Below, piece after piece: positions 23,672-61,622 of a stretch of 64,000 nucleotides of DNA. Numbering within the stretch: position 1 is the first letter of the stretch; every line of letters starts with the position of its first letter. The notes under the pieces are model-generated. The model saw only the letters and a list, made by a program, of their open reading frames with translations, was not told where the DNA came from and searched no databases. The stretch comes from Kalaharituber pfeilii (taxonomy: Eukaryota; Ascomycota; Pezizomycetes; Pezizales; Pezizaceae). The stretch is taken from assembly GCA_015179045.1 (NCBI GenBank), contig WHUZ01000038.1:62001-126000 (forward strand), in the 5' to 3' direction. Position numbers and translations under genes: made by a program.

Positions 23672-24184
23672 TTTGCGATGCGAAGCGCTTCGAGGGCTCC
23701 AGATGGCGGTTTCGATTCAAGCGCAGAGGGGCAGAGTAGAGCGGTGACTCGTAGTGTCTATGTGTGTGCTGAACTGCGCGGCTGGTTGAGCGATATATAT
23801 ATACGGGGGACTGCAGCGTGGATGGCGGGGGAAGCTTTAGACTTTTCTGCTGAGTCTAAAGGTGGGATATGGGATATTATGCGGGATGCGGGATGTGGGA
23901 CGGCGGGTGGAGGGGGCTATGCAGGCTGCATGCGCCAAGCTGCATCGCGGCTGAATAATGCCAGGGTCGGAACCAGACTACTAGTACCGCTTAGCGACTG
24001 ACTAAGCTACTCCACGCTACGCCGGACCTCGGCAAGAGGCTCAGGGTAACGCCGCACGGCCCGGGCCAGCCGAGCTCCATTCGCCCAGCTCCTAAACTCT
24101 ACAAGCACGCTGCGGACATCAAACTTTCCCCCCACACACCATATAAAACTGGAGGCATTTCCCACCCCCCTCCACCGCCGGAGA
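23672..24184. promoter_or_regulatory. Divergent promoter region between DOM34 and the Nudix gene
   Basis: This 513-bp spacer separates opposite start codons at 23671 (-) and 24185 (+). A short TATATATATA string lies at 23793-23801. No other motif was recognised. Confidence 0.45.
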
Positions 24185-25315: not shown

Positions 25316-28300
25316 GCTCCGCATTTCCAGTCGAAACTCTTTGCCCCCGAGAAAATTATCATTATCAACAGGATTAAACAATCTAAACCATGCCAGGGAA
25401 TAGTAACCCAATGGACATATTCATCCATCTCCGTAGACTCCCACTGCCCGACGAATATATTATTAGGATCAATTAAAGAGTTGATCTTAATGTTCATTGA
25501 ACAAAGCATACTGTGCCGTACTTGCCCCTCGTAATCCTCCTCGGTTGACATCTCTCTTGAAATACAAGTATCAGTTAACGGATGTACCCCAGGTGGCCTT
25601 TCCCCTCTTTATAGGTCCAGCTACTATTAACTCATCAATCGCTGCAGTGCTTGTCTTGAAAGAAATATAAGGCTACAACGGGAGAACCCCTACCTGTAAG
25701 TACCTTACTGTGAATACTCGTGGTATGATAAGGGCGGCAAGAAGTTAGCTAGTCTTGGCAAACGGAGCCACCAGTTTCCCTAATCGGGAGTGCCGCTATC
25801 GTGGGTCCTATGATAGGTTCTCAGACATAATTTAAACCTCTATTCTTCGCACAGCCATCAGTGAACGCAACGGAGTACGCATACGCATAGACAAATTGTC
25901 TCTCACACACTAACACGACCGTTTTCAGGCGCAAATAATGGCACGGGAGCGGATGTATCGTTTCACGAAGTGGTTGTTTGAGTGGAATGAGTTTGCGCGT
26001 GGCGAGTTGGCCGAAGGGCTGTGGCACTTAGTGGTGGTTCCTGGAACCTACTCCAAGCCATGGCACCACAGCTAAAATCTGCCAAGTGTACCTCTCTCTG
26101 GATACAACGCCACACGGCGTTGTATGGGGATTCCGTCTGGTTCTGGTATCTTTATTCTGGTGCTGCCGAGCAGAACCAGTTTGTCAAATTGATCGCACTT
26201 CCGGAATGTACATCTTTATGATGCCAACAAGCCTGATACTCTGGGTGGACTCATCCAGAACGGCTCGGTAACGGAAGCAAATTTCCTTGACACGCTGGGG
26301 ATTCTGCTAGTCACAGAGGGTGGGATACGTGAGCCGCATTAACATCAGGGCCACACAGTAACGAGGTTAAACAACGGTCTAGAGCTCGGAGAGTGTTTGC
26401 GAAAGTAGGTGGCTACTTGTAGAGGGATATCCAATAGCTAACTTGCGATAGGTCCCATTCAGATGACTAACGAGTCATGGGTGCATCGACTTATTTCATT
26501 CGATATATCGGGCCGAGAGGACAGCTTTCGTGAAGGGATACGTAGTTGAGATAGGCGATGTGACATCAGCGGAATGATAAACAGGATGGCTCCGTATGAT
26601 TGGACTATATTTGAGGCAGCACACATCTTTCCATAGGAGAAGGAAAGTCTTTGAATTGAGTCGGATTTTGGGCGGTGGGTTAAAGACATAAACGACACTA
26701 TTAGCGTCTTGAAGATCAACTCATTGCAGAGCGGTTTCTTCTCAAATCAGACGTTCAGGGCTTATTTGACCAGTAGTTGGTATCAGCCAATCCAGATGTG
26801 AGTCTTATTTCCATTAGACGGTTTATTAGCATAATCAACTAGGTATAGGATGGCTACAAGATCGTGGTATTTAAAAGTTATCAAAGAGACAGGAAAGAGA
26901 CAAATTAGACGTTAGTTATTATTGAGAGGAGCGCTCGGGTAGAGGTCCGTAATGAAGTATAGAAAAGAAGTAGTGAAGCCTAAGTGCTTGTTACTTTGTT
27001 TTCTTTACTTAGATAAGGTTAAGGAACTCGACAACAAGATGGACGGAAAATTGGGAGAATCTCGGCAATACGATGGATAGGAAATTCGATTGGGCCGATA
27101 CCAAATGTGATCATTTGATCTACATTTTCTTCGGTGGTCCGGTGTTAAAAGGAGGGTTCAATTTTTATATGAATGAAACAAAACCAGAAAGATGCTTAGT
27201 CTGGTTGCTAAAGGATGCTGTTGCGCAATGCCAGAGAAAAAAAAGCCTCTATAATAACCACTTATAGCCCCCATTATTGTACCGCATTCTTTGCTGCACT
27301 TTCTGCTCCGGTCGCCTTCGTAGACTGCATACTTGTATGAATGATGTCGTCCTTGACTGCCAACAAGATACAATATTTCTCTCCACCTTGGACACAGAAC
27401 CGCTGAAAGAACTTTGAATTTTTATTTTTGTCACCATAGGGCCTGGAATATCATCTGATGAACACATTAAAACAAAAGATAGAGAAAATATCCGTTGAAA
27501 CCTGCAAACGTCCTGCGCCCATGCTCAGACCGAATGTTCCGACTCCGAAACCAATGATCCATTTGATCCAGCTTTCGAACTTGTTAAATCTATTGTCACA
27601 CCTCTTTTCCATGCTGTCAAATCTTTTTATCTATTGCTGTTTTTCATTCCCTGATTTCAACATTCAGAGAAGCAAAGTCCTACTGGTCAGTTCGCACCTG
27701 TTGCAGTGCATAGAGAAACACTTTTCCTGCAGTGCTACTTCGAAACTTAAAACTGGCATCCGTTATCTCAGCTTTGTAGGCCCAGGTTTCTCTTCTCAAA
27801 TCCATCAGTCCCGGACAATGCTGCCAGTCTTCTGTTCTCTTCACCCCAGTCTCCGTGGTTGGGGTCTTGGTTGACCACCGACCAAAGGCGAGCTCGCAGC
27901 AACATCATCTCCATATTATCCACCCAGGTTGTGTAATTAGTCTTGTTAAGCTTCTCAATAAACTTTTGAGAGCTGGATTTCTTTTGACATTTTGGCGGAT
28001 TGGGGTAAAGAGGAGTATTGTAGAGGAGGGAGTAAATGAGGGGGTTGAGGGAGTTGGGGTAAAGAGATTTGTACGGCGGGGGTTAACTGAGGGGGTTGAA
28101 GAAGATGCTCAAGTGTGGGAGGGGGAATAGGAGTTCTGGAAAGAGAGGGTATAGGGGAGGATGAATTGGCTCGACGGCGGTGTTTAGGAAGTTGTCCGTG
28201 TGTTGGAGGAAGTGAAGCCAGCCTTCTAGTAAAGATGAAGCCTTTTAGATGCAGGAGTAAACCTCTTCTTCAGATGCAGTAATGCAGTGCGGGCTCATAA

Positions 28301-28556
28301 CCTGTAGGCCCAGATTTCTCTTCTTTTCATTGATGATCAAAATCAAGTCCATCAGTCCTGTGTCCAAATCCTATTACCTACATATCCTCCAAGCCTTATA
28401 CATGTGACATGAACCTGAGCCCATATAATGCCATCACCAAGTATGCACCTCTCCTACAAGTTTGCTCCCTTCTAGTAGATAGTTAGTATATCTACACTAG
28501 TAGCCGCGCTCAAACTCAAAGCTCACCTGAATGGTGGTGAAATTCCGACGCTGGGG
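25316..28556. other. Gene-poor region left of the TIR element
   Basis: About 3.2 kb without a convincing intact gene. It contains a possible coiled-coil/membrane-protein remnant at 27461-27860 (separate entry). At 28000-28130 there are imperfect direct repeats of a GGGGTAAAGAG...GAGGGGGTTGA unit. A partial second copy of the sequence around 27778-27815 (GTAGGCCCAGGTTTCTCTTC) occurs near 28303-28365. The rest is AT-rich and unremarkable. Confidence 0.55.
27461..27860 (-). pseudogene. Possible coiled-coil, single-membrane-span protein remnant
   Basis: On the minus strand a short frame from an ATG near 27617 reads MEKRCDNRFNKFESWIKW and continues into a hydrophobic IIGFGVGTFGLSMGAG stretch before a stop at 27461. 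Upstream (27680-27860), in other frames, is Glu/Lys/Arg-rich coiled-coil-like sequence interrupted by stops. The pattern, a coiled coil followed by one membrane span, is visible but no family is recognised. A partial second copy of the upstream part lies near 28.3 kb, so this is probably repeated, decayed sequence. Confidence 0.28.
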
Positions 28557-28659
28557 GTAGTCTGGTTGCACTACCCCTCGTAGAGGGTCTGGTCCAAAAC
28601 ATTGATTTTTAGTATGGCGCTCGGTTCAGGATGGTGTCTTGGCGGACGACACCAATAGT
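28557..28659 (+). repeat. Left 103-bp terminal inverted repeat
   Basis: It begins GTAGTCTGGTTGCACTACCC and ends ACGACACCAATAGT. Read against the reverse complement of 33954-34056 it matches without a visible mismatch. An inner imperfect palindrome (ACCCCTCGTAGAGGGT) lies about 15 bp from the tip and could be a recognition site. Confidence 0.93.
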
Positions 28660-28778
28660 AGCAACGTGTAATCACAGATATAGACCTAAACACCACACTA
28701 AACAATATCCTTGAAAATTGTGACCTATCCACTCATTGCAAAGAGAACCTCTGCTCAATCCTGAGAATATTTCCTAAT

Positions 28779-30200
28779 ATGGAGAATACAAATAGAAGAG
28801 GCCAACCACCCAAACCCGTTGAGGCAGCCCCCCATTGGAGAACTCTAGCTGCACGTGAGGAAGCTGCACCTAAGCTGGTGGAAATAATGGAGAAAATCAA
28901 TCAATATTTCGGAGGTATTCGCGGGTTTCTGAATGCATGGACTGAGAATGATCAAACTAAAGTCTCACGAAATAATTTTATACGCTCTGGGGCATATGAA
29001 ATTGTATCATTATGGCTACCATTAATGGATAAAGTGCTGGAGGAGATGCTCTTGGACAACGTGATTAGTCTATGTAACAAAGAGATCAAAAATGTACTGG
29101 ATGACCAAAGCTCAATATTGCGTTATGTTCGCAAGGGCATTGAGAAGGACTTGGAAGGGGCTATAACTAAATCATTAGATGATATGGAGGAAGTGGCAAG
29201 GATGTCATTACCTACTCTGTGGAAAATACTGGAAAGAGTAACACTTATAAGAGGATCATCTGAGGAAGCCCAAATAGGGAGAAGGTCAGGAATTAAGAAA
29301 GTTATTACATGCTCAATCATATGTATATTGAATGTACGGAACCAAAAGGTGAATGCATTCTAGACTTTAATAGGAGTCTTCTTGCATACCAGTCATCTTC
29401 AAAAATCTGGAATTGAGGTTTTACATGGCTTGGGTATGACCTGCTCCTACAACCATTTAATAGGAGCCATACGGAAGTTAGCAAGTGACCTCCGAAAAGA
29501 TCTAAAATTAATAAGTGCGGTGTACCTAATGAAGATTAATATTAACAACATCAATCAAAAGGTTGGGGTACGTAATGGTAGCAGTACAAGGATGTCCATG
29601 ATAGATAATAGTACTGGAGGGTTTGCCACGAAGGTAGCACGTGTACCACCGGGAACTCGACGAATTCCTAGAGAATGGTTATCAGCAACAAAAAGAGTGA
29701 GTTTAGATCCCAGGGATTTGGCGCCATCCGATGTGGCGTTGGACTTCATGTGCCATTATAGGAAGTACTATATGGAGGAGCTGTTAGAAAGAATGGTAGT
29801 TAGGGGGATAGCAATAGGACAGAAAACAGAGAAGTTGTTCGAGAAACTATGAGTAGAGGTCCTATATATGGAGAGCGCAAAAATATACCCACTGGACTTG
29901 ATGGCTATTGAGCAAGCAAGTACAACTGGGAATCTGGAAAGTATAAAACGTTGCTTGTCAAAGGACTTGGGATATACAAACCAGGACTTGATGAAAGGAA
30001 TATATGTAGTAGGAGGCGATCATCTCTTAGTCTCAAGAGTGAAAAGTATCCAACGGTTAAGAGAAAGTGATGTTTTGGGAGAGGACTTTAAGTTCGTTCT
30101 GCCATTAATAGGTTCTTTGCATACTGCAATGAATTTTATGAAGATGATTATGAAAAAGCATTTGGAGCCCAGGGATGGGAGTGTGCCAGGGTCAAATTGA
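28779..30200 (+). pseudogene. DUF6589-type protein, broken by in-frame stops
   Basis: One continuous reading frame of about 470 codons is interrupted by TAG at 29361-29363 and TGA at 29850-29852. The frame is the same before and after both stops. The sequence follows the DUF6589 pattern of fungal proteins: a helical N-terminus, then TLIGVFLHTSHLQKSGIEVL with a Ser-Tyr motif (TCSYNHL), then KININNINQKV, then STTGNLESI, and GGDHLLVSRVKSIQRLRES followed by LPLIGSLHTAMNFM. In related sequences, from memory, the ININNINQ segment usually carries an Asp (DNINF/DNFD), which is Asn here. Both stops can be explained by C-to-T changes (CAG to TAG, CGA to TGA). The function of DUF6589 is not established. 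Its place between TIRs suggests a transposase or transposition factor, which is inference. Confidence 0.7.
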
Positions 30201-30202
30201 TG

Positions 30203-31640
30203 CTATAAGAGCTGTCTGAACTTTAGCTGCAATACTGAGTGGTTGAGAAGGCTGGCTGGTATTTGTTTGAGACAGTGGGGGTTGCGACTCGTGCACCGCA
30301 TAATAGCTCTGGATATGAAGATTTGTGTAAAGATATGTGAAGCTTGGTAAGAGTTAGTGATATTGCCATTACAGATGTATGAGGAGTAATTACCATATTT
30401 CCTGAACATTCTCTCAAATGTGAGGCCTGGGATTTTGAAGAGATCTGCGGGTGAATGAATTCCACGACATTTGGTGGCGAGGATATGAATCTGTTCTGTA
30501 CTCATAATCCATGAATTTACATGTAATCTTGACTTTGGGTATTCTTTGTGCAGGATCTCTTTGCACAAACTAGAAAGTATAGAACGAAGAGACAATTGTA
30601 ACTCATTAGGAGTGGTGGGATATTTTGAGGTACTTCGTGAATTTGGGGGCTGGAATAAGACCACCGTATCAAAGACCTCGAGTGCTAACCTATCGATATG
30701 ATCTGTATCATAAAGATCACAATAGATGCCATTATACAAAGTCTCATCATTGTATTGTTGGTCTGTATAGTAACCTATGGCTATATTTAATAGTCCCTGG
30801 GGTGTTTATGAAACGGTAAAGCCCCATTTCCATTATACCGCGAATTTCGGCCGGTGTTCTGCGCTCTTTTAGGTTCCTCGTCTGCAGTTCATTTCCTTGG
30901 TGTAGGTGAGATTAAATAATCTCCGAAACAATCCTTCTCACAGAATAAGAGACAAAACCCTTGGATAGTAGAATCTCTAGCACATCATCCAAACCTTTGG
31001 ATCAATGTATCCAAGTTATTCATGTCCTTGGCCTTCCATTGGATAACTCTATGGACATGTTTATTGTTAATTCCCATCCCCCATACAGAAGTTGCAACCA
31101 ATATACGAGTGACGCCTGCCCTCCAATCAGCTTGAGTATATTCCTTCATGACAGCAGATAATGTAGCATGATACACTGTTACAATTTTCTCAGCCCTAGA
31201 TCTTGGATCAAAAACCCAACGATTTTCAGGTTCTGGGCGATTATTTATAATAGGAGGTAGAAGTGATTGCAGATGCTGCACAATTTTGTGAGCCAATAAT
31301 TTATCATCCACGTAGATAATAGTAAGAGGAATCTCTCTTTGGTCATACTCTCTCCCCTGATCTTTACATGGGGGAATCAAGGAATCAAGATCTCCAGCTC
31401 CTTCAATGTCACCTCCCTCACGGATCTCACGAGCTGCGAAGAATAGATTAGTCCTGTTGATCGGTTCCATGATACTGATTGCTGTCTTCTGAATCCCAAG
31501 ACCCTTCCTAATTCGTTTGAGTTTCTCTGGTGTAGCTGTTGCTGTGTACATTCCAAAGGGTACTCCAGGGATTTTGTAGCGGAAAGTGTCTAATTTTGAG
31601 AAATCTGTTCGGAAATCATTTCCCCTAATCTCAAATCAGT
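30203..31640 (-). pseudogene. RecQ-like DNA helicase, 5'-truncated and broken
   Basis: On the minus strand the frame from about 31640 reads FGMYTATATPEKLKRIRK (helicase motif III), then a RecA-like second lobe with VYHATLSAVMKEY, RILVATSVWGMGIN (motifs IV-V) and LIQRFG (motif VI start). There a TGA replaces an expected Arg codon. After it, FCLLFCEKD and a shifted frame with TPAEIRGIMEMG lead to a Cys-poor version of the zinc-binding CCDxC region (GIYCDLYD) and a C-terminal tail to 30203. Motifs I and II are absent. The homology stops close to the minisatellite, so the 5' half was deleted. The gene ends 2 bp from the end of the DUF6589 frame. It resembles the RecQ-like helicases that are multicopy in many fungi. 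Confidence 0.72.
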
Positions 31641-31756
31641 ATTAGCAATATTGAACAGTAAATTCGTTAATATTTTGTGGGTATCAAGGGTAGAAGGATA
31701 GTACAATGCGGGTGTCAAGCTAGGTGACCGCAGGCGACGGCACCAAATGTACCCCC

Positions 31757-31905
31757 AAGACACCAGGTACAAGTGCGACGGCACCCGGGTACAAGTGCGA
31801 CGACACCCACAGAACCCCCCAAGACACCAGGTACAAGTGCGACGACACCCACACAACCCCCCAAGACACCAGGTACAAGTGCGACGACACCCACATAAAT
31901 TGCGA
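31757..31905. repeat. 42-bp minisatellite, about 3.5 copies
   Basis: The unit starts GTACAAGTGCGACGACACCC and ends CCAAGACACCAG. Two full 42-bp copies differ at a single base, and partial copies lie on both sides. Because 42 is a multiple of three, open frames cross it on both strands, but these are not supported as genes. It sits where the helicase remnant loses its 5' half. Confidence 0.9.
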
Positions 31906-32548
31906 CACCCAACAATTTGGAACTCACCAATCCTCTACCAAGTGACATTCATCCACAACAACAAATGCATCAGCAAAAAAAAATTTCCGCTGAGCGGAAA
32001 CCCTACGCCCAGGGCGTGGCAGGTTCGCCCTCAATGCCTACAGCCCCCGGCATTTTTACAAACTCGTATTGCATACTCAACATGTAATGTAACCACTTAT
32101 CGCACTGTATTGCGCCCAGTGGAACTAAAATCACTTGCTTCACCTACGGCATAATTGATGATACCTCTCAGTTAGACGTGCCTACTCTCGTAGCCCAGGT
32201 GTGCAGTCGGTATAAGGACCTATATGCTGGTAATGCCATCCACAATGTAGATGCCATAGCACATTGAATAACTAATTATTCATTTCCAGCATGCGATCAA
32301 TAGAATAAAAAAAACAAAAAAAACAAGGTTATTTATTTCTAGCTATTATGATCTATATACAGGTGCCATTTTCACCATTCCTCCATGCCATGCCATCGTA
32401 TATCGCCCTACCGATCTAGCTCTTTCATGTAAATATAGCCCATATTGCCACAGCTCGCTATGGTGCATCTCGAGCCATCAAGAAAAGGCTGAAGAGCTGC
32501 CGTAGCTGTTATATTCTGGCTCATCTCTCGCTAGCATGGAGCCCTGCC

Positions 32549-33100
32549 ATACCTGTCAATAGAGCTCATTCTGCAGTACATGTCGCGCCATCGAGAGGCT
32601 GCCATACCTGTTCAGTTGAGCTCATGTTGCCATATCTCGCGCCGTCGAGAGGGCACTGCCATACCTGTTAAGTTGAGCTCATGTTGCCATATCTCGAGCT
32701 GTCGAGAGGGAACTGCCGTACCTGTAAATTGAGCTCATTCTACTACATCTTGCGCTGTCATGTAGGACCTTCCGTACTTCTCAAATTCAGCTCATTCTAC
32801 TACATCTCGCGCGGTGGAAATAGACCTGAATAACCTGTTAAATTGAGGTAATTCTGCTACATCTCACGCCGTCATATAGGACCTGTGATACCTACTAAAT
32901 TTGGCTCATTTTGCCACATCTCATGCCATCGTATAGGGCCTATTGTATCTGCCAAATTCGGCTCATGCTGCCTCATCTCGCACCATTGTATAGGACCTGC
33001 CATACCTGTTAAGTTCAGCTCATTATACTAGTGCATCTTCCACTATAGAAGGGGGCTTGCCATACCTGTTAAATTCAGCACTGTCGTACTTGTAAAGTTG
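32549..33100. repeat. Satellite array of about 57-bp units inside the element
   Basis: About ten diverged head-to-tail copies follow the pattern GCCATACCTGTTAAATTGAGC, then TCATTCTGCTACATCTC, then a GCGCCGTCGAGAGG-like end. Many units contain the palindrome GAGCTC. Copies differ from each other by roughly a quarter of their bases by eye, so the array is old. More diverged versions extend to about 32.38 kb on the left and 33.13 kb on the right. Confidence 0.85.
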
Positions 33101-33619
33101 AGCTCACTCTGCTACAGCTTGCAGCATAGACAGGAGTCTATTGATAGGATTCCGTAGTACTTCTCAGGCCATTTACTTCTGCTACACCTGTTGCATTTTT
33201 CACATTGACGAATACTGTTATTTTCAGCGCATAGGTACATTGGGCAATTTCCTACCACTGAGGTTTCAGCTCATGCCTCAGCAACCCGGAAGTATACTGA
33301 TCAATAGCTCATTATGCTCAGTCTGTACCCACGCATCAGGACACTATTTTCATTATTGCTGATGTAGTATAGACCATAAAGATACCATTACAAAGTATGA
33401 AGAACTATTGTAGAGTACAAAGATACTTTAATGGAGATAGTAAATGCAGAGAGTTACTATCTGCTAGGCCAAAAAGATACTTAACTAGCGATGCTCACTA
33501 GTCATCTGCATAGCTTATATAGCACTCATTTCATGACTGCGATGCCTTTGCTATCATATATTACCTGAATTGCATATGCGTGCGTACATCCACCGACTGC
33601 CCACCCTACAGTTTGGTAA

Positions 33620-33850
33620 GCTGTAACATTGAGCATATTGAGTATACTGAGTATGCATATGATATATTGGAAATATAGAGTATATTGAGCATGTTAAGCA
33701 TATTGAGTGCATGCACATATAAGATACTAGGAATGCTAAGCATATTGAACACACCTATGAGATATTAAGTACATTGAGTATACTAAGCATGTGCATAAGG
33801 TATCGAGCATAATGAGTATGCTGAATGCATACATGAGATATTAAGTATAT
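33620..33850. repeat. Degenerate short-period repeat (GCATATTGAGTA type)
   Basis: About 230 bp is built of loosely repeated AGCATATTGAGTAT-like words with a period near 10-12 bp. It lies just inside the right TIR. It is AT-rich and probably bent or easily melted DNA, but no function can be read from sequence alone. Confidence 0.7.
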
Positions 33851-33953
33851 CGAATGTTAGTACAAGATGTAATCTGGTTGAATAGGAAATAGGTGTGTTG
33901 TCGTACTCAGAGAACAGGTGTAGAGTACCAGCATAAGTGTACTAAACTAATAG

Positions 33954-34056
33954 ACTATTGGTGTCGTCCGCCAAGACACCATCCTGAACCGAGCGCCATA
34001 CTAAAAATCAATGTTTTGGACCAGACCCTCTACGAGGGGTAGTGCAACCAGACTAC
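33954..34056 (-). repeat. Right 103-bp terminal inverted repeat
   Basis: This is the inverted partner of 28557-28659, ending at the outer tip with CAACCAGACTAC. The flanking GCTGAGG may be the right target-site copy. Confidence 0.93.
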
Positions 34057-36985
34057 GCTGAGGGCAAGTGGGACTGCCACAGACACGTAATGACGGACTA
34101 CAACAGCATGACGACCAGTATTGAAAGCTGTGCGGAACACGATGTTTGCCTGAGGATTGTGTTTGAAAAGCACTATTGGTGATGTTGGTTCGTGTCTTCC
34201 GGCACGAGACTATAAACGCACCATTCCTTTTTCCCTAAGCAAAATAAAAGCAACAACCTTTAGCCCAACTCCCCGCAGGACTGCTCAACTCCAACCGTTG
34301 TATACTTCAATATTCAATCTACTATTTATGCATTCAGTTAGCTTGCGCACAATTGTCCCCGTAAACCAAATCGTTTCACTTACTGCTTCATGGCTTGGTG
34401 CACCTTTATCTTTCTCCTTTTTCATTACCATGTTCATGACCTCATACATAGTGTGCTGACAAAGGGAAAGTTGTATAGAGGAAGGTACAGGAGCAAGTCC
34501 CGAAGTTATATTGTCTATTGAACTGTGTAGCAATGATGATGGCTATCCTCCTCGAGTTGAGGAAGACCCTCTTCCTTCTATCCCATTTCCAGATTCCGCT
34601 TCTTTCGGCCCGTGGCCCACCAATGGCTGCCGCTCCTGCCATTTCCCGAACTTTCCACCATGGGGGTTTGCGACAGTGCTCAACTACGTCAACTTTTCCA
34701 CTGATAGCCCCGATCATCTCAAGCATCCCTTTACATCACCATCAACTCTAACAGCCCTGTCCGTGCCTTCTTTTATCGTACTTCTCAAAACACCTTTCAG
34801 CTCTTTCTTCGACTTACGGATTTCCTCCTTATAATCACTTTGATAAAAGATTTTGTATATAACCTAGAGATGTCAGTAACGACAGCACTTACAACAGATC
34901 CAAAAAGAAAACATACCCACCAAGTCCGAGTAACACTGTTCCGAGACTAAACATAAACATCAACTTTACATAGCCATACATTTCAGTTTTTGTAAGTTCA
35001 TTCAGTTTAAGAGCAAGAGCCACATCCTAAATTTACTTCGTTAGTGTTGAATAGATTCAAACTCGGAGTCGAAACACTTACAGTTTCAAGCTGAGAATGT
35101 TCCACACCATTTGCCACTTTGGAATGCTGCACTTGCTCAGAACACCCCAGACTCTGACCTCCTTAAATCACTAAAAGAAAATACACATAGATAGTCCGAA
35201 TGACTTCACGAGTAAAAGAGAAGGCACGATTGTCCACGCAAACGAGACTCGGCCGGACCTAACAAGTCTGACGAAAGACCTTACGATAGTACCTGCTGTT
35301 AGCACTGGGTCTTTGCACCTCTTGGCAGCATCCAGTACCCGTCTGGATACGAGAGAGAGAAGTTCCATGTATTTGTTTATGGTACAAAAACGCGGCATGC
35401 AGGCCTCCCGGCCTATGGCCTACGAGAAATTGTAGGTGCAGTGCGTAGGCAATAGCCTTCGGGACTATGCAGTATAAGGAAAGGTGCCTTGGAGTCGCGA
35501 GACATGTACCCGAGAGGGTCCACTTGCGAAAACACAACTCAACCAAAGGTACTCCTTCTGACACGAGAACATCCTTTGGAGATTCCGAGAAAAAACCTAG
35601 ATTCTCTGATGCTCATTCGAGTGGTCCATAATTTTTTTGTACTTTTTAATCTACTTTATTGTTTTTTGCTATTTTTTGTTATTTTTTGAACAGTACTGAA
35701 AAGAGGTGCAAGGAGGGTCTGCTTGAAAGCACGTCTCATTTTTCCTTATGATGCATACTCCCGAAGACTTTTGAATGTGCCAGTTCGCCGAGAGTGTGCG
35801 GAGTCTAAGGTTGTTCGTAGTGATGGAACGATGGCAGCACCATTACCTGCCTTGCCAAGAGAAGTTTATTAATGAATACCTCTTCCACAAACGGTACACA
35901 CTTCCCTATTTATCCTTGTCACCAAGTAAAAAATCATATTGGTGTAGCGATAAGATCGATTGATAACTAGTGGTGCTCTGATAAGATAAGATGGGGAGCA
36001 GCGCCGTTGCTGCCTATGCTACGCCGTTTCCAGCATCGTGTTCACCGCCGTATGCGCCAAGCCCCGACCGCAGGCAAAGTACAGCGCTGCAATTTCGCAC
36101 GCCTCAGCTCAGAGTGGCTCCGAGTTCGCCCAGCCATCCGCGCAGCCAGCTGAGCTGCCGAAGTATGTCGAGTATCGTATCGTGCGCCTCCAACCGCACG
36201 CTGCTTCCAGTAGCCCACCCAAGCTGTTGTCTCTGCTGGCCCTCTGGTGCACGCAGTTCAGCCCAGCAGCCCAGCAGCCCAGCAGCCCACAGCCATCGCG
36301 CTACCTCACCCGTCCCTCGTTCCTCCGTGCAAAGTTGGAACATCCGAAGGAAAACACAGCCAAACGGATCCAGCCCATACTATACTAGAGAAAGTGCTGC
36401 GCAGCTTGGAGGCCAAGAGCCTTGCCTGTTGGGACATACCTACATCATACTGCGGCGCTCGTCTGACTAGCACATCGTTTTTTTCGCTCCCTCCAAACTA
36501 CATTAATCCCGCCCAATTTCTTGTTTGTTTATGACCTGTACTGCCTGTACTGCCTGTACTGCGTACGCCCTCCTGCTGCCATCAGCCCGTCAGCAAATTC
36601 TCCATTCTCCTTCATTCTTTACTCAAGTAGCCAGCGCCGGTGCCTCTGGTATCACTGTCTGCGAGCAGGCTGTGTTGTTTGTTTACCTTGTACTCAACAG
36701 GTCGCGGCACTGTTCCAGTTGTGCTGTTTCTTTCTTTCCCTCCACAGTAAACCCCCCTCAACCCCGCCAGCGACGGTGTCACGATTGCAACGGCCTACCA
36801 TTTGCCTTTCGAACCACCACAAACTCCTGCCAACTGGGTACCACGCTCGTAGCATAGCACTAACGAGCGGCAAATCTTACATTAATAAGAAGGAGCCGCA
36901 AACACCTGATCAAACTGCTCGAGCCGGTCAATTATTACACGCACACTGTCCCTTACTTCGGCTCCTCTAAGTAGCCTCCTCCTAC
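34057..36985. other. Intergenic region between the TIR element and the IQGAP gene
   Basis: It contains a possible small membrane-protein gene at 34555-35160 (separate entry). A frame at 35171-35398 (-) is unrecognised. The stretch 36000-36985 is C-rich with CAG-type and CTGTACTGC tandem repeats (36537-36562) and is probably the promoter and 5' leader of the IQGAP gene. Confidence 0.5.
34555..35160 (-). CDS. Possible small coiled-coil membrane protein
   Basis: Minus-strand segments joined by plausible GT-AG introns give protein-like sequence. A polar part reads SKVANGVEHSQLET, with donor GTAAGTG. It continues with DVALALKLNELTKTEM, then one membrane span (LMFMFSLGTVLLGLG). A second intron is followed by a Lys/Glu-rich coiled coil (YKEEIRKSKKELKGVLRS) and GMLEMIGAISGKVDVVEH. 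The last parts need one or two frame changes, ending either in a Gly/Ser-rich tail or in a basic tail. No family is recognised. Its coil-plus-span pattern recalls the remnant near 27.5 kb on the other side of the TIR element, but the order of parts is reversed. Confidence 0.33.
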
Positions 36986-59227: not shown

Positions 59228-61622
59228 TCACATGAGCCAAGGGTGACTTAGTGCTGATTCAACTGTGATAACTTCCTCTAGTTTGGCTATAAACCGTCCG
59301 CCATTTCCCTGGTCAGGATCTTCATTAAGCAAGTAAGCAAATTCTTCCATCATAGCAATAGATCCATAGTCTCGTGGGTATGCATAGAAGCCGTCGTCCA
59401 GCTTGGGCCAGTAGGCTAACTGAAAAGCAACTGGGCCTTCCTTGGCAGCATGTTCTCAGTCAATGACCCGGATACGCCCATCAGCATCCTCCACAACATT
59501 TGTCCATCTGAGATCATGGTACACGAAATTATGGCGGTATAGCCAACTTAGGCCGTGCAAATAACTCGGATTGCTTTCCGGAGATCTGAAATGCTCCTAG
59601 GCAGGAAGGGGAATCCAACAGAAATGAGATAAAGACGAATCATGGACCTTCAAAATCTGGCCTGGCTTTCGAGGTTCACCATGTTCGCAGGCTTCTCATG
59701 AAAAATAAGGCAGTACAACTCTTTCAGATCATCCACAACCGAATACTCGCAATCCGCAGGGGCTTCTTTTAGTACAACTGAGGGGTAAACGACTTTATAA
59801 GAAACCATAGTATGAGGCACTCCACGTTCCAAGCTTCTCAGAATTGGCTGGTACCAGATTCTGGTGTGAGCTCTTCTCTTCCTCCCTAAACACCACCGTA
59901 CCCACCTGCTTCATTTTCCGAACTGTTATTATGCAGTCATAGCTTTCTGGTCGAAGAGACCTATGACGAGACGGCGTAGCAGCATCCACTCCTTGCACGC
60001 TGCCGGAAATCTTAAGCTAGCAAAATATAGGAGGCGCGGTCCGGCGGCGCAGATGGAGAAGCAGAAGCCCAAATAGAAAGGAGTGTCATGAGAAAGAAAT
60101 GTCTATTCTCCATGATTGCTTGATTGACGCTATCCATCCAATCCTACATACATGAGGGGAACTTTTCCATTATGTTATCCTCAAGCCCCATCCCAAGTCA
60201 ACAAGCCATATACAGCAGTCACGAACCATAGAATATGCCAGGCCAACTTCCTAAACAAAATGTTAAACTTTATTTTTGACCGAGGTGCCACAATATATTA
60301 GACAGGTTTTATACAAACCCTGAAATTTGCGGATAACTTAATTAGTAATCATGCTAAAACCCTGAGAGTGCGTCAGGTTTTGTAAGTTAGCCTGAAAACT
60401 CAGGAATTAACTACCGGTACACTACAAACGTTGTGATGTACGGTAGGTTGCGGCGTACTAGTCGCTGAATTAACAGCTGGAGATTGAGTAGTCCGTAGAG
60501 GGTGCCCACAACATCGTACTGGGATAGATTTTCTTGAGTAGATAGAGGAGTGCATTGGCTAATTTATCGTGTTTATTGGATGTAAATATCTTTAGAATTG
60601 AGTGTTGTGGGAATTTTATAGTCTTAAGGGTCAGTTTTCCGGATTTCGGAAGGGAAATTTTCAGGACTTGTTATAAATAAACACGTTGTTGCTAAGGTAA
60701 CGTATTTTTTTCCCAAACCCTGAAAAAGTTCGGGTTTTATAAAACCTCTCTAATGGTCACTACACTTGACGATTTTCATTGCTCAAGCTAACCATAGATG
60801 TTGGTTCCACTCGCTTTGGCTCCCTAGCATCTTCAACTTCTTGCAATATTGCTAGGATATAGCCAAATAGGGTACTGATATCCTGTCTAGGTTCTGCCGT
60901 AACTCTGACTTTAACCCCAGATGAGTTGATTTAGAATGGTGCCCCGTCGGCGTCAAGGATATAAACATTGTCGTTAACACGAAGGAACACCCGTTAGTCT
61001 CCCGTACTCACAATCCCGTAGAGTTGCTGTTGCTCGTAGGCTGGGTTCAAGTTCCCTTCACGTTTTTGATTCCTATTACCTTTCCTGCCTTGTAGTATGA
61101 GTACTTCTGCATCGTATTCATCTTGAGAAAGTTCCTTACTGCCGAGTCCAACAGAATCGAACATTGTGACACCCCCTGGTCAAAATCTCTCTGCTTGACT
61201 TCAGTAATCACAATTAGGGTACCTTTATATTCGACAGCATAATCTACTGGACCACTGTCCAGACTTCCAGAGATATACTTTTGCATTCCCGGTTTGAACT
61301 TCCCATCATACAAATAAATTACTTGCTTCAGAATTTCATAGACAAGCGCAAAACGGCCGCTTTCCTTCCCAGTCACTGTGCCCGGGGAGCTGGTTACGAG
61401 ACTACCCGAGGAGATCCTAAATAGCTTGCTGACTTCGTTCACTATGCGCGCTTGAATATTTCTTATATCTATATCCCTCCCACCTACATTCTCCCTACCA
61501 GCACATATAAATCCACTTACAGCTACTGGAGACCGTTTGAATTTAGGAAGATCGTCGCAGGACTCTGCCTCTATATGAAAGTGTGGTCTGAAGTCATTGA
61601 AAGTCCAGCTAGAAATGGCCTC
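59228..61622 (-). pseudogene. Crinkler-type nuclease plus protein-kinase-like gene, broken
   Basis: Minus-strand pieces in family order. Near 61.6-61.5 kb is an N-terminal segment ending at a GTAAGT donor. At 61047-61442 is a PD-(D/E)XK nuclease-like domain with GPVDY and VITEVKQ. At 60.76-61.02 kb is a middle region with two in-frame stops. A 450-bp MITE-like insertion occupies 60301-60750. At 59650-59998 are kinase-like N-terminal parts. At 59228-59560 is a kinase catalytic loop resembling HRD (YHDLRWTNVV), then RVID with a TGA directly after it, and a C-lobe ending at TGA 59228. REase plus kinase is an architecture known from Crinkler-type effector and conflict proteins, which are multicopy in some fungi. 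This copy has several stops, at least one frame shift and an insertion, so it is not functional. Confidence 0.68.
60301..60750. mobile_element. 450-bp MITE-like insertion
   Basis: The ends are imperfect inverted repeats. The left is GACAGGTTTTATACAAACCC and the right, read inverted, is GAGAGGTTTTATAAAACCCG. TA flanks both ends (60299-60300 and 60751-60752), giving a plausible TA target duplication. The interior is AT-rich and non-coding, with an internal word TCAGGTTTTGTAAG resembling the ends. It splits the nuclease-kinase relic. Confidence 0.62.

What the first reader, a model, noticed from the sequence alone, without database searches (positions are those of the whole stretch)
28557..34056. 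TIR element pairing a DUF6589 protein with a RecQ-like helicase
A 5.5-kb segment with perfect 103-bp TIRs contains two converging genes, one of DUF6589 type and one RecQ-like helicase. I know of no described DNA transposon defined by this pair. DUF6589 has no assigned function. Its Asp-containing motif near ININN and its GGDHL motif are spaced like catalytic acids of RNase-H-fold transposases. If the pair recurs between TIRs elsewhere, DUF6589 would be a new transposase family and the helicase an accessory factor.
Basis: partly seen in the sequence, partly recalled or inferred. Interest (0 to 1): 0.88.

Follow-up and report, generated by a model that had tools for sequence, protein, structure and literature searches.

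The report
Dead copy of a helicase-carrying fungal transposon
The segment is a broken copy of a jumping DNA element that carries a transposase-like protein (DUF6589) and a RecQ-type helicase; such elements appear to be already known as Academ or AcademH transposons, but the link to the unnamed protein family DUF6589 is useful to have on record.

Summary
A 5.5-kb element with perfect terminal inverted repeats (TIRs) lies at 28558-34055 and contains converging remnants of a DUF6589 gene and a RecQ-like helicase gene. The pair recurs in this genome (Kalaharituber pfeilii, a desert truffle): 13 of 23 DUF6589 loci have a RecQ hit within 3 kb, all 13 convergent. In six other elements (6.7-10.1 kb) I found both ends, each with a perfect 9-bp target-site duplication (TSD); seven paired loci have no ends found. 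Two elements, 97-99% identical, sit at different sites, so the unit moved as a whole. AlphaFold models of DUF6589 align best to DDE transposases (Hermes, P element, RAG1), with conserved acidic residues. DUF6589 as transposase is therefore well supported. The novelty claim is not: 'RecQ Helicase in Academ' is in print (PMC3627910), and AcademH, the helicase-carrying Academ lineage, makes 9-10-bp TSDs (PMC10045372). The AcademH paper is not held, so identity of DUF6589 with the Academ transposase is inferred. The window copy is dead: N for the first conserved D, in-frame stops, a deletion through both genes, no recognisable third gene, RIP-like mutation. A third gene is shared by 6 of 7 elements compared.

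The parts
28549..28557 (.). left target-site duplication CGCTGGGGG
   Evidence: 8 of 9 match with the right flank; 9 of 9 in the six other elements with both ends found
28558..28659 (+). left terminal inverted repeat, 102 bp
   Evidence: 100% complementary to the right arm; ends fixed by comparison with other copies
28662..30194 (+). remnant of the DUF6589 (transposase-like) gene, N-terminal and middle part only, three open pieces in one frame separated by two stops
   Evidence: PF20231 E 1.1e-20 in 29853-30197; open frames; 96.5% identical to C335 by BLASTN, 97.1% with gaps left out
29541..29558 (+). first conserved motif, Asp replaced by Asn (INNINQ; sister copy IDNVNQ)
   Evidence: D in 14 of the 15 (of 18) rows with a residue there
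30012..30026 (+). second conserved motif GGDHL
   Evidence: D in 17 of the 17 (of 18) rows with a residue there
30194..30195 (.). deletion junction: C335 bases 115047-116689 are absent, removing the C-terminal ends of both genes
30195..31969 (-). remnant of the RecQ-like helicase gene
   Evidence: Helicase_C E 2e-8; 96.0% identical to C335 over 30195-31898; VVDECH motif II at 31942-31959
31759..31895. tandem repeat of 21/42-bp units inside the helicase remnant; C335 has a longer array at this place (by eye from its frames)
31970..33914 (.). about 1.9 kb with no BLASTN match (E 1e-5) in the C335 copy; it stands where C335 has a further gene; contains a 57-bp tandem array (32543-33024)
33954..34055 (-). 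right terminal inverted repeat, 102 bp
34056..34064 (.). right target-site duplication CGCTGAGGG

Best explanation
The segment is an inactivated, internally deleted copy of a cut-and-paste DNA transposon of the Academ superfamily, most likely its helicase-carrying lineage AcademH. DUF6589 is the transposase: an RNase-H-fold DDE enzyme with a large helical insertion, as in hAT and P elements. It would bind the TIRs (TAGTCTSGT...), cut the element out and join it to target DNA at staggered positions, giving 9-bp duplications. The RecQ-like helicase is carried by the element as an accessory, probably to unwind ends, gaps or the donor site during excision or repair. A third gene of unknown role follows the helicase. 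Shown here: TIRs, TSDs, movement of the whole unit, linkage and conserved acids. Supported by predicted models only: the DDE catalytic domain. Inferred: which protein cuts, what the helicase does, and identity with AcademH.
Against: No Academ or AcademH sequence could be compared; the primary paper is not held. Foldseek gave no PDB hit at E <= 0.001 for either model, and both models rest on the same 18 sequences. The last catalytic acid is not fixed. Nine of 23 DUF6589 loci have no RecQ hit within 9 kb. Of the 14 paired loci (13 plus C304), seven have no ends found (C35, C2, C57, C223, C181, C352, C314:162k). C2 and C57 have other inverted repeats 12-14 kb apart that do not start like the TIRs and lack a TSD. 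Three TIR copies (C23, C360, C79) have no TSD. C298 and C327 also share a 134-bp, 77% repeat outside the element.
Confidence: 0.85

Rival explanations
1. A DUF6589 transposon lineage that is separate from Academ/AcademH and acquired a RecQ helicase independently.
For: No held paper links DUF6589 or PF20231 to Academ; no Academ sequence could be compared; a third gene is shared by 6 of 7 elements compared.
Against: Helicase type, 9-bp TSD and fungal range agree with what is in print for Academ/AcademH (passages).
Confidence: 0.1
2. A MULE, hAT or P-type transposon in which DUF6589 and the helicase are passengers and the true transposase is another protein, such as the third gene.
For: MuDR-type elements with 9-bp TSDs are in print (PMC3627910, passage); the models resemble hAT and P transposases; the third gene recurs in 6 of 7 elements.
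Against: Pfam gives only DUF6589 for the whole 978-aa protein at E <= 1, no MULE, hAT or P-element domain; TSDs are 9 bp, while hAT and P make 8 bp (recalled); five third-gene pieces have no Pfam hit; DUF6589 itself has the DDE-like model.
Confidence: 0.04
3. A chance inverted duplication around two unrelated host genes.
For: None of substance; the window copy alone has an imperfect TSD.
Against: Multiple copies, TSDs, and movement of the unit.
Confidence: 0.01

Closest known systems
AcademH (helicase-encoding Academ DNA transposons)
   Same: TIR element, 9-10-bp TSD, encodes transposase plus helicase, reported as low-copy in Basidiomycota, Ascomycota and Mucoromycota (passages in PMC10045372 and PMC10799480)
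   Different: Homology of the transposases not tested (no sequence held); a third gene is seen here that I could not compare with the AcademH description
Academ with RecQ helicase (Kapitonov et al., cited in PMC3627910)
   Same: RecQ helicase listed as carried by Academ transposons (one sentence)
   Different: Architecture not given in the passage seen
AcademX (Academ with nuclease)
   Same: Same superfamily by name
   Different: 3-4-bp TSD and a nuclease in print (passage); here 9-bp TSD and a helicase
hAT (Hermes) and P-element transposases
   Same: Predicted DUF6589 models align best to these, over ranges that include a large insertion before the last helix
   Different: No Pfam hAT or P domain; 9-bp rather than 8-bp TSD (8 bp recalled); carries a helicase
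KDZ and Plavaka transposons of fungi
   Same: Fungal DNA transposons with accessory genes (PMC12730594, passages)
   Different: The accessory gene there is TET/JBP; TSDs of 8 bp (Zisupton, Dileera) or 2-3 bp (Plavaka)

Membership tests
AcademH | encodes a helicase beside the transposase | tested here: met
   RecQ-like helicase by NCBIfam and Pfam; WRN, RecQ1, RecQ and BLM among the nearest solved proteins
AcademH | target-site duplication of 9 or 10 bp (PMC10045372, passage) | tested here: met
   9 bp, perfect in the six other elements whose two ends were found; 8 of 9 in the window copy; seven paired loci have no ends found; three TIR-only copies have none
AcademH | terminal inverted repeats | tested here: met
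AcademH | transposase homologous to Academ transposases | not testable with these tools
   no Academ sequence or profile available; primary paper not held
DDE transposases (RNase-H fold) | RNase-H-like catalytic core with acidic triad | tested here: inconclusive
   best VIA-align matches are DDE transposases and two Asp are conserved, but Foldseek E-values are weak and the third acid is not fixed
AcademX | 3-4-bp TSD (PMC10045372, passage) | tested here: not met
   9-bp TSD
hAT | 8-bp TSD and hAT transposase domain (recalled) | tested here: not met
   9-bp TSD; only DUF6589 in Pfam at E <= 1
MULE | MULE transposase domain | tested here: not met
   only DUF6589 in Pfam at E <= 1
Helitron | no TIR and no TSD; Rep/helicase protein (recalled) | tested here: not met
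   TIRs and TSDs present; helicase is RecQ type

The most novel reading that the evidence does not exclude
DUF6589 is a DDE transposase lineage distinct from the described AcademH transposase, and the element moves by a three-component machine (transposase, RecQ helicase and the conserved third protein) that has not been described.
Probability: 0.13. Interest if true: 0.65.

Novelty: new member of a known kind. Interest (0 to 1): 0.36.

Why it matters
It gives a likely function to a Pfam family of unknown function (DUF6589): the transposase of a helicase-carrying transposon group. Fungal proteins annotated as DUF6589, and RecQ-like genes beside them, should then be read as probable transposon genes, not host genes. 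Six elements with both ends known, including a near-identical recent pair, make the role of a transposon-borne RecQ helicase open to test.

Tried and rejected
Held papers naming DUF6589: none; PF20231: one unrelated physics paper (listing). The AcademH paper was sought by DOI, PMC id and PubMed id and is not held. The third gene was not searched for in the literature by itself; my paper searches were for DUF6589, PF20231, Academ/AcademH, RecQ transposons and the species. Two scans of viral contigs, with P0006 and P0009, found no relative. Rfam: no family at gathering score in the window. The YbeY hit (helicase-side ORF 30206-30805) and the OGG hit (helicase remnant) are below cut-off and rejected as chance. 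The PDB sequence search with DUF6589 gave only two weak hits to polymerase acidic protein (E 0.8), rejected. No matching TIR pair was found for C35, C2, C57 or C223, although one TIR-like end was seen for C35. C2 (36 bp) and C57 (64 of 73 bp) have other inverted repeats 12.1 and 13.8 kb apart that do not start like the TIRs and lack a TSD; not pursued. For C181 and C352 the search of the held DNA gave only arms that lie in short repeats. For C314:162k only the short held stretch was searched, without a result. Whether C339 has a RecQ gene beyond the held stretch was left open; searches list none on that contig.
Full report
OBSERVATION. The inverted repeats at 28557-28659 and 33954-34056 are 103 nt and 100% complementary. 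Other copies show that the element proper is 28558-34055 (5498 bp) and starts TAGTCTGGTTGC. The 9 bases on each side, CGCTGGGGG and CGCTGAGGG, match at 8 of 9. Pfam finds DUF6589 (PF20231, E 1.1e-20) in the plus-strand ORF 29853-30197 and Helicase_C (E 2e-8) in the minus-strand ORF 30988-31635.

THE GENOME. Proteins returned for contigs whose lengths equal those of C314, C296 and C35 are named as Kalaharituber pfeilii, a desert truffle of the Pezizaceae (PMC7550596, passage). The assembly has 78.0 Mb in 360 contigs.

RECURRENCE. The 103-bp TIR has 33 BLAST matches in this genome, the window's own two included. The DUF6589 profile has 34 matches, which I group into 23 loci; two of these (C235, C24) are below the family's cut-off. 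RecQ hits, from the window's helicase (34 matches) and from the recQ_fam profile (39 matches, 35 of 144 candidates scored), lie within 3 kb of 13 of these 23: C314:261k, C314:162k, C35, C296, C2, C57, C181, C335, C298, C327, C352, C223:2.006M and the window. All 13 are convergent. A fourteenth, C304, keeps a RecQ C-terminal tail, recognised by 98.8% DNA identity over 1039 bp with C352. For the other nine (C339, C146, C314:148k, C68, C313, C344, C329, C235, C24) searches list no RecQ hit within 9 kb; the nearest to C314:148k is 9.1 kb off, divergent, and belongs to C314:162k. Several of the nine are partial or carry stops, and both searches give lower bounds.

ENDS AND TARGET-SITE DUPLICATIONS. 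Both ends were found for six elements besides the window copy, each with a perfect 9-bp TSD: C335 (9613 bp, GGTATTTAC), C296 (9616, GCGGAATAA), C314 (10128, CTCGCTACG), C298 (10118, GTCATAGCC), C327 (9685, GTGTGGTAA), C304 (6747, TAGATCAGG). Two placements used the TSD itself. For C304, of two inverted repeats (39 and 25 nt) I took the outer one. For C298 I set the outermost two bases, which differ between the arms, by the TSD and by C327. The ends resemble TAGTCTSGT, with variants TGTTCTCG and CAGTCTCG. The other seven of the 14 paired loci have no ends found: C35, C2, C57 and C223 after fetching flanks, C181, C352 and C314:162k in the held DNA only. Of five further pairs of window-type TIRs, C58 and C312 have 8 of 9 TSD bases but their flanks are alike, so they count once; C23, C360 and C79 show no TSD. 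C79 has inverted arms of 564 bp, 550 matching. C360, C58, C312 and C23 contain RecQ fragments with stops and no DUF6589 hit, so they look like deletion derivatives.

MOVEMENT OF THE UNIT. C298 and C327 are 98.9% identical over 6329 bp and 97.2% over 3748 bp, and these alignments end at the TIRs. A separate 134-bp, 77% match lies outside both elements at different distances, as a dispersed repeat would. Their flanking 9-bp repeats differ. The DUF6589-RecQ unit has thus moved as a whole, fairly recently.

ARCHITECTURE. In C314 and C296 the order is TIR, DUF6589, converging RecQ helicase, third gene, TIR; C335 has an open frame in the third place too. Third-gene products of six elements (C314, C296, C298, C2, C35, C304) match one another by BLASTP in a database of seven: best values 2.7e-60 (C296/C314), 6.4e-28 (C314/C35), 2.2e-17 (C2/C298) and, for C304, 6.5e-11 (with C2); C304 with C314, C296 or C35 is weak (0.009 to 0.055). 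The C335 product has no significant match (best 0.48), so 6 of 7. Five third-gene pieces have no Pfam hit; two of these were also scanned against NCBIfam, without a hit. The C335 helicase has a SAP domain (E 7e-9). I could not check whether AcademH is described with a third gene.

HELICASE. Three ORFs (two of C296, one of C335) match recQ_fam at E 1.3e-22, 2.1e-22 and 3.3e-25, all far below its curated cut-off. The closest solved relatives of the C296 protein by sequence are WRN, RecQ1, bacterial RecQ and BLM. Of the matches listed only C112:1873845-1875254 passes the cut-off; it is presumably the host gene.

STATE OF THE WINDOW COPY. Against C335, two blocks (28558-30194 and 30195-31740) are 97.1% and 96.8% identical with gaps left out. 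C335 bases 115047-116689 are missing at 30194/30195, which removes the C-terminal parts of both proteins, including the E825 motif. The first conserved Asp reads Asn. Two in-frame stops split the DUF6589 frame. Bases 31970-33914 have no BLASTN match in C335, and I recognised no third gene there. Of 97 substitutions, 72 are C to T or G to A in the window relative to C335, against 10 in the reverse direction; the 72 fall mostly at CpA (31) and CpG (29) rather than CpC (7) and CpT (5). This resembles repeat-induced point mutation or methylcytosine decay; which one was not tested.

COMPARISON WITH WHAT IS KNOWN. PMC3627910 (two passages seen) lists 'RecQ Helicase in Academ' among transposon-borne proteins. 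PMC10045372 (passages) states that AcademH generates 9 or 10 bp TSDs and AcademX 3 or 4 bp, and relates this to helicase and nuclease. PMC10799480 (passages) states that AcademH is low-copy in Basidiomycota, Ascomycota and Mucoromycota. The AcademH paper itself (Kojima 2020, Mob DNA 11:15) is not held; I know its title from reference lists and by recall. The element agrees with AcademH in the features I could test; homology of the transposases I could not test. No held paper names DUF6589, and the only PF20231 hit is unrelated.

VERDICT. The element is most likely a dead AcademH copy, so the kind is known. What may be new is the naming of DUF6589, the conserved third gene, and the description in this fungus.

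Noticed in passing
window 23970-24022: About 53 bp matching the terminal repeats of the C304 element (81-83% identity), so another terminal remnant of this transposon group may lie there.
   Followed up: no
window 27197-27208 and 61393-61404: Two further exact TAGTCTSGTWRC motifs outside the element; 4 matches in the window, the two TIR ends included, against 0.04 expected. The sequence beyond showed no BLASTN match to five whole elements.
   Followed up: partly
window 31970-33914: Stretch without a BLASTN match in the sister copy, with a 57-bp tandem array (8.5 copies); origin not determined.
   Followed up: no
C79:559973-562803 (L003, L006): Foldback-like derivative with 564-bp inverted arms (550 matching) that begin with the same TIR, without a TSD.
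   Followed up: partly
C314:263915-265594 and C298:304567-306711 (L058, L056): Very similar helicase ORFs (by eye) with a short repetitive coding stretch (KPTCGFGFxHGGMRSGFGI type) of differing copy number; the C298:304k copy has no DUF6589 hit beside it.
   Followed up: no
C352:87674-88327 (L062): An open frame that looks like a Ty1/copia-type polyprotein piece (my reading, no search run) lies beside the RecQ gene.
   Followed up: no
C223:619853-620362 (L041): Open frame resembling the N-terminal part of the C335 DUF6589 protein (by eye), convergent with a RecQ hit, not listed by the DUF6589 profile search.
   Followed up: no
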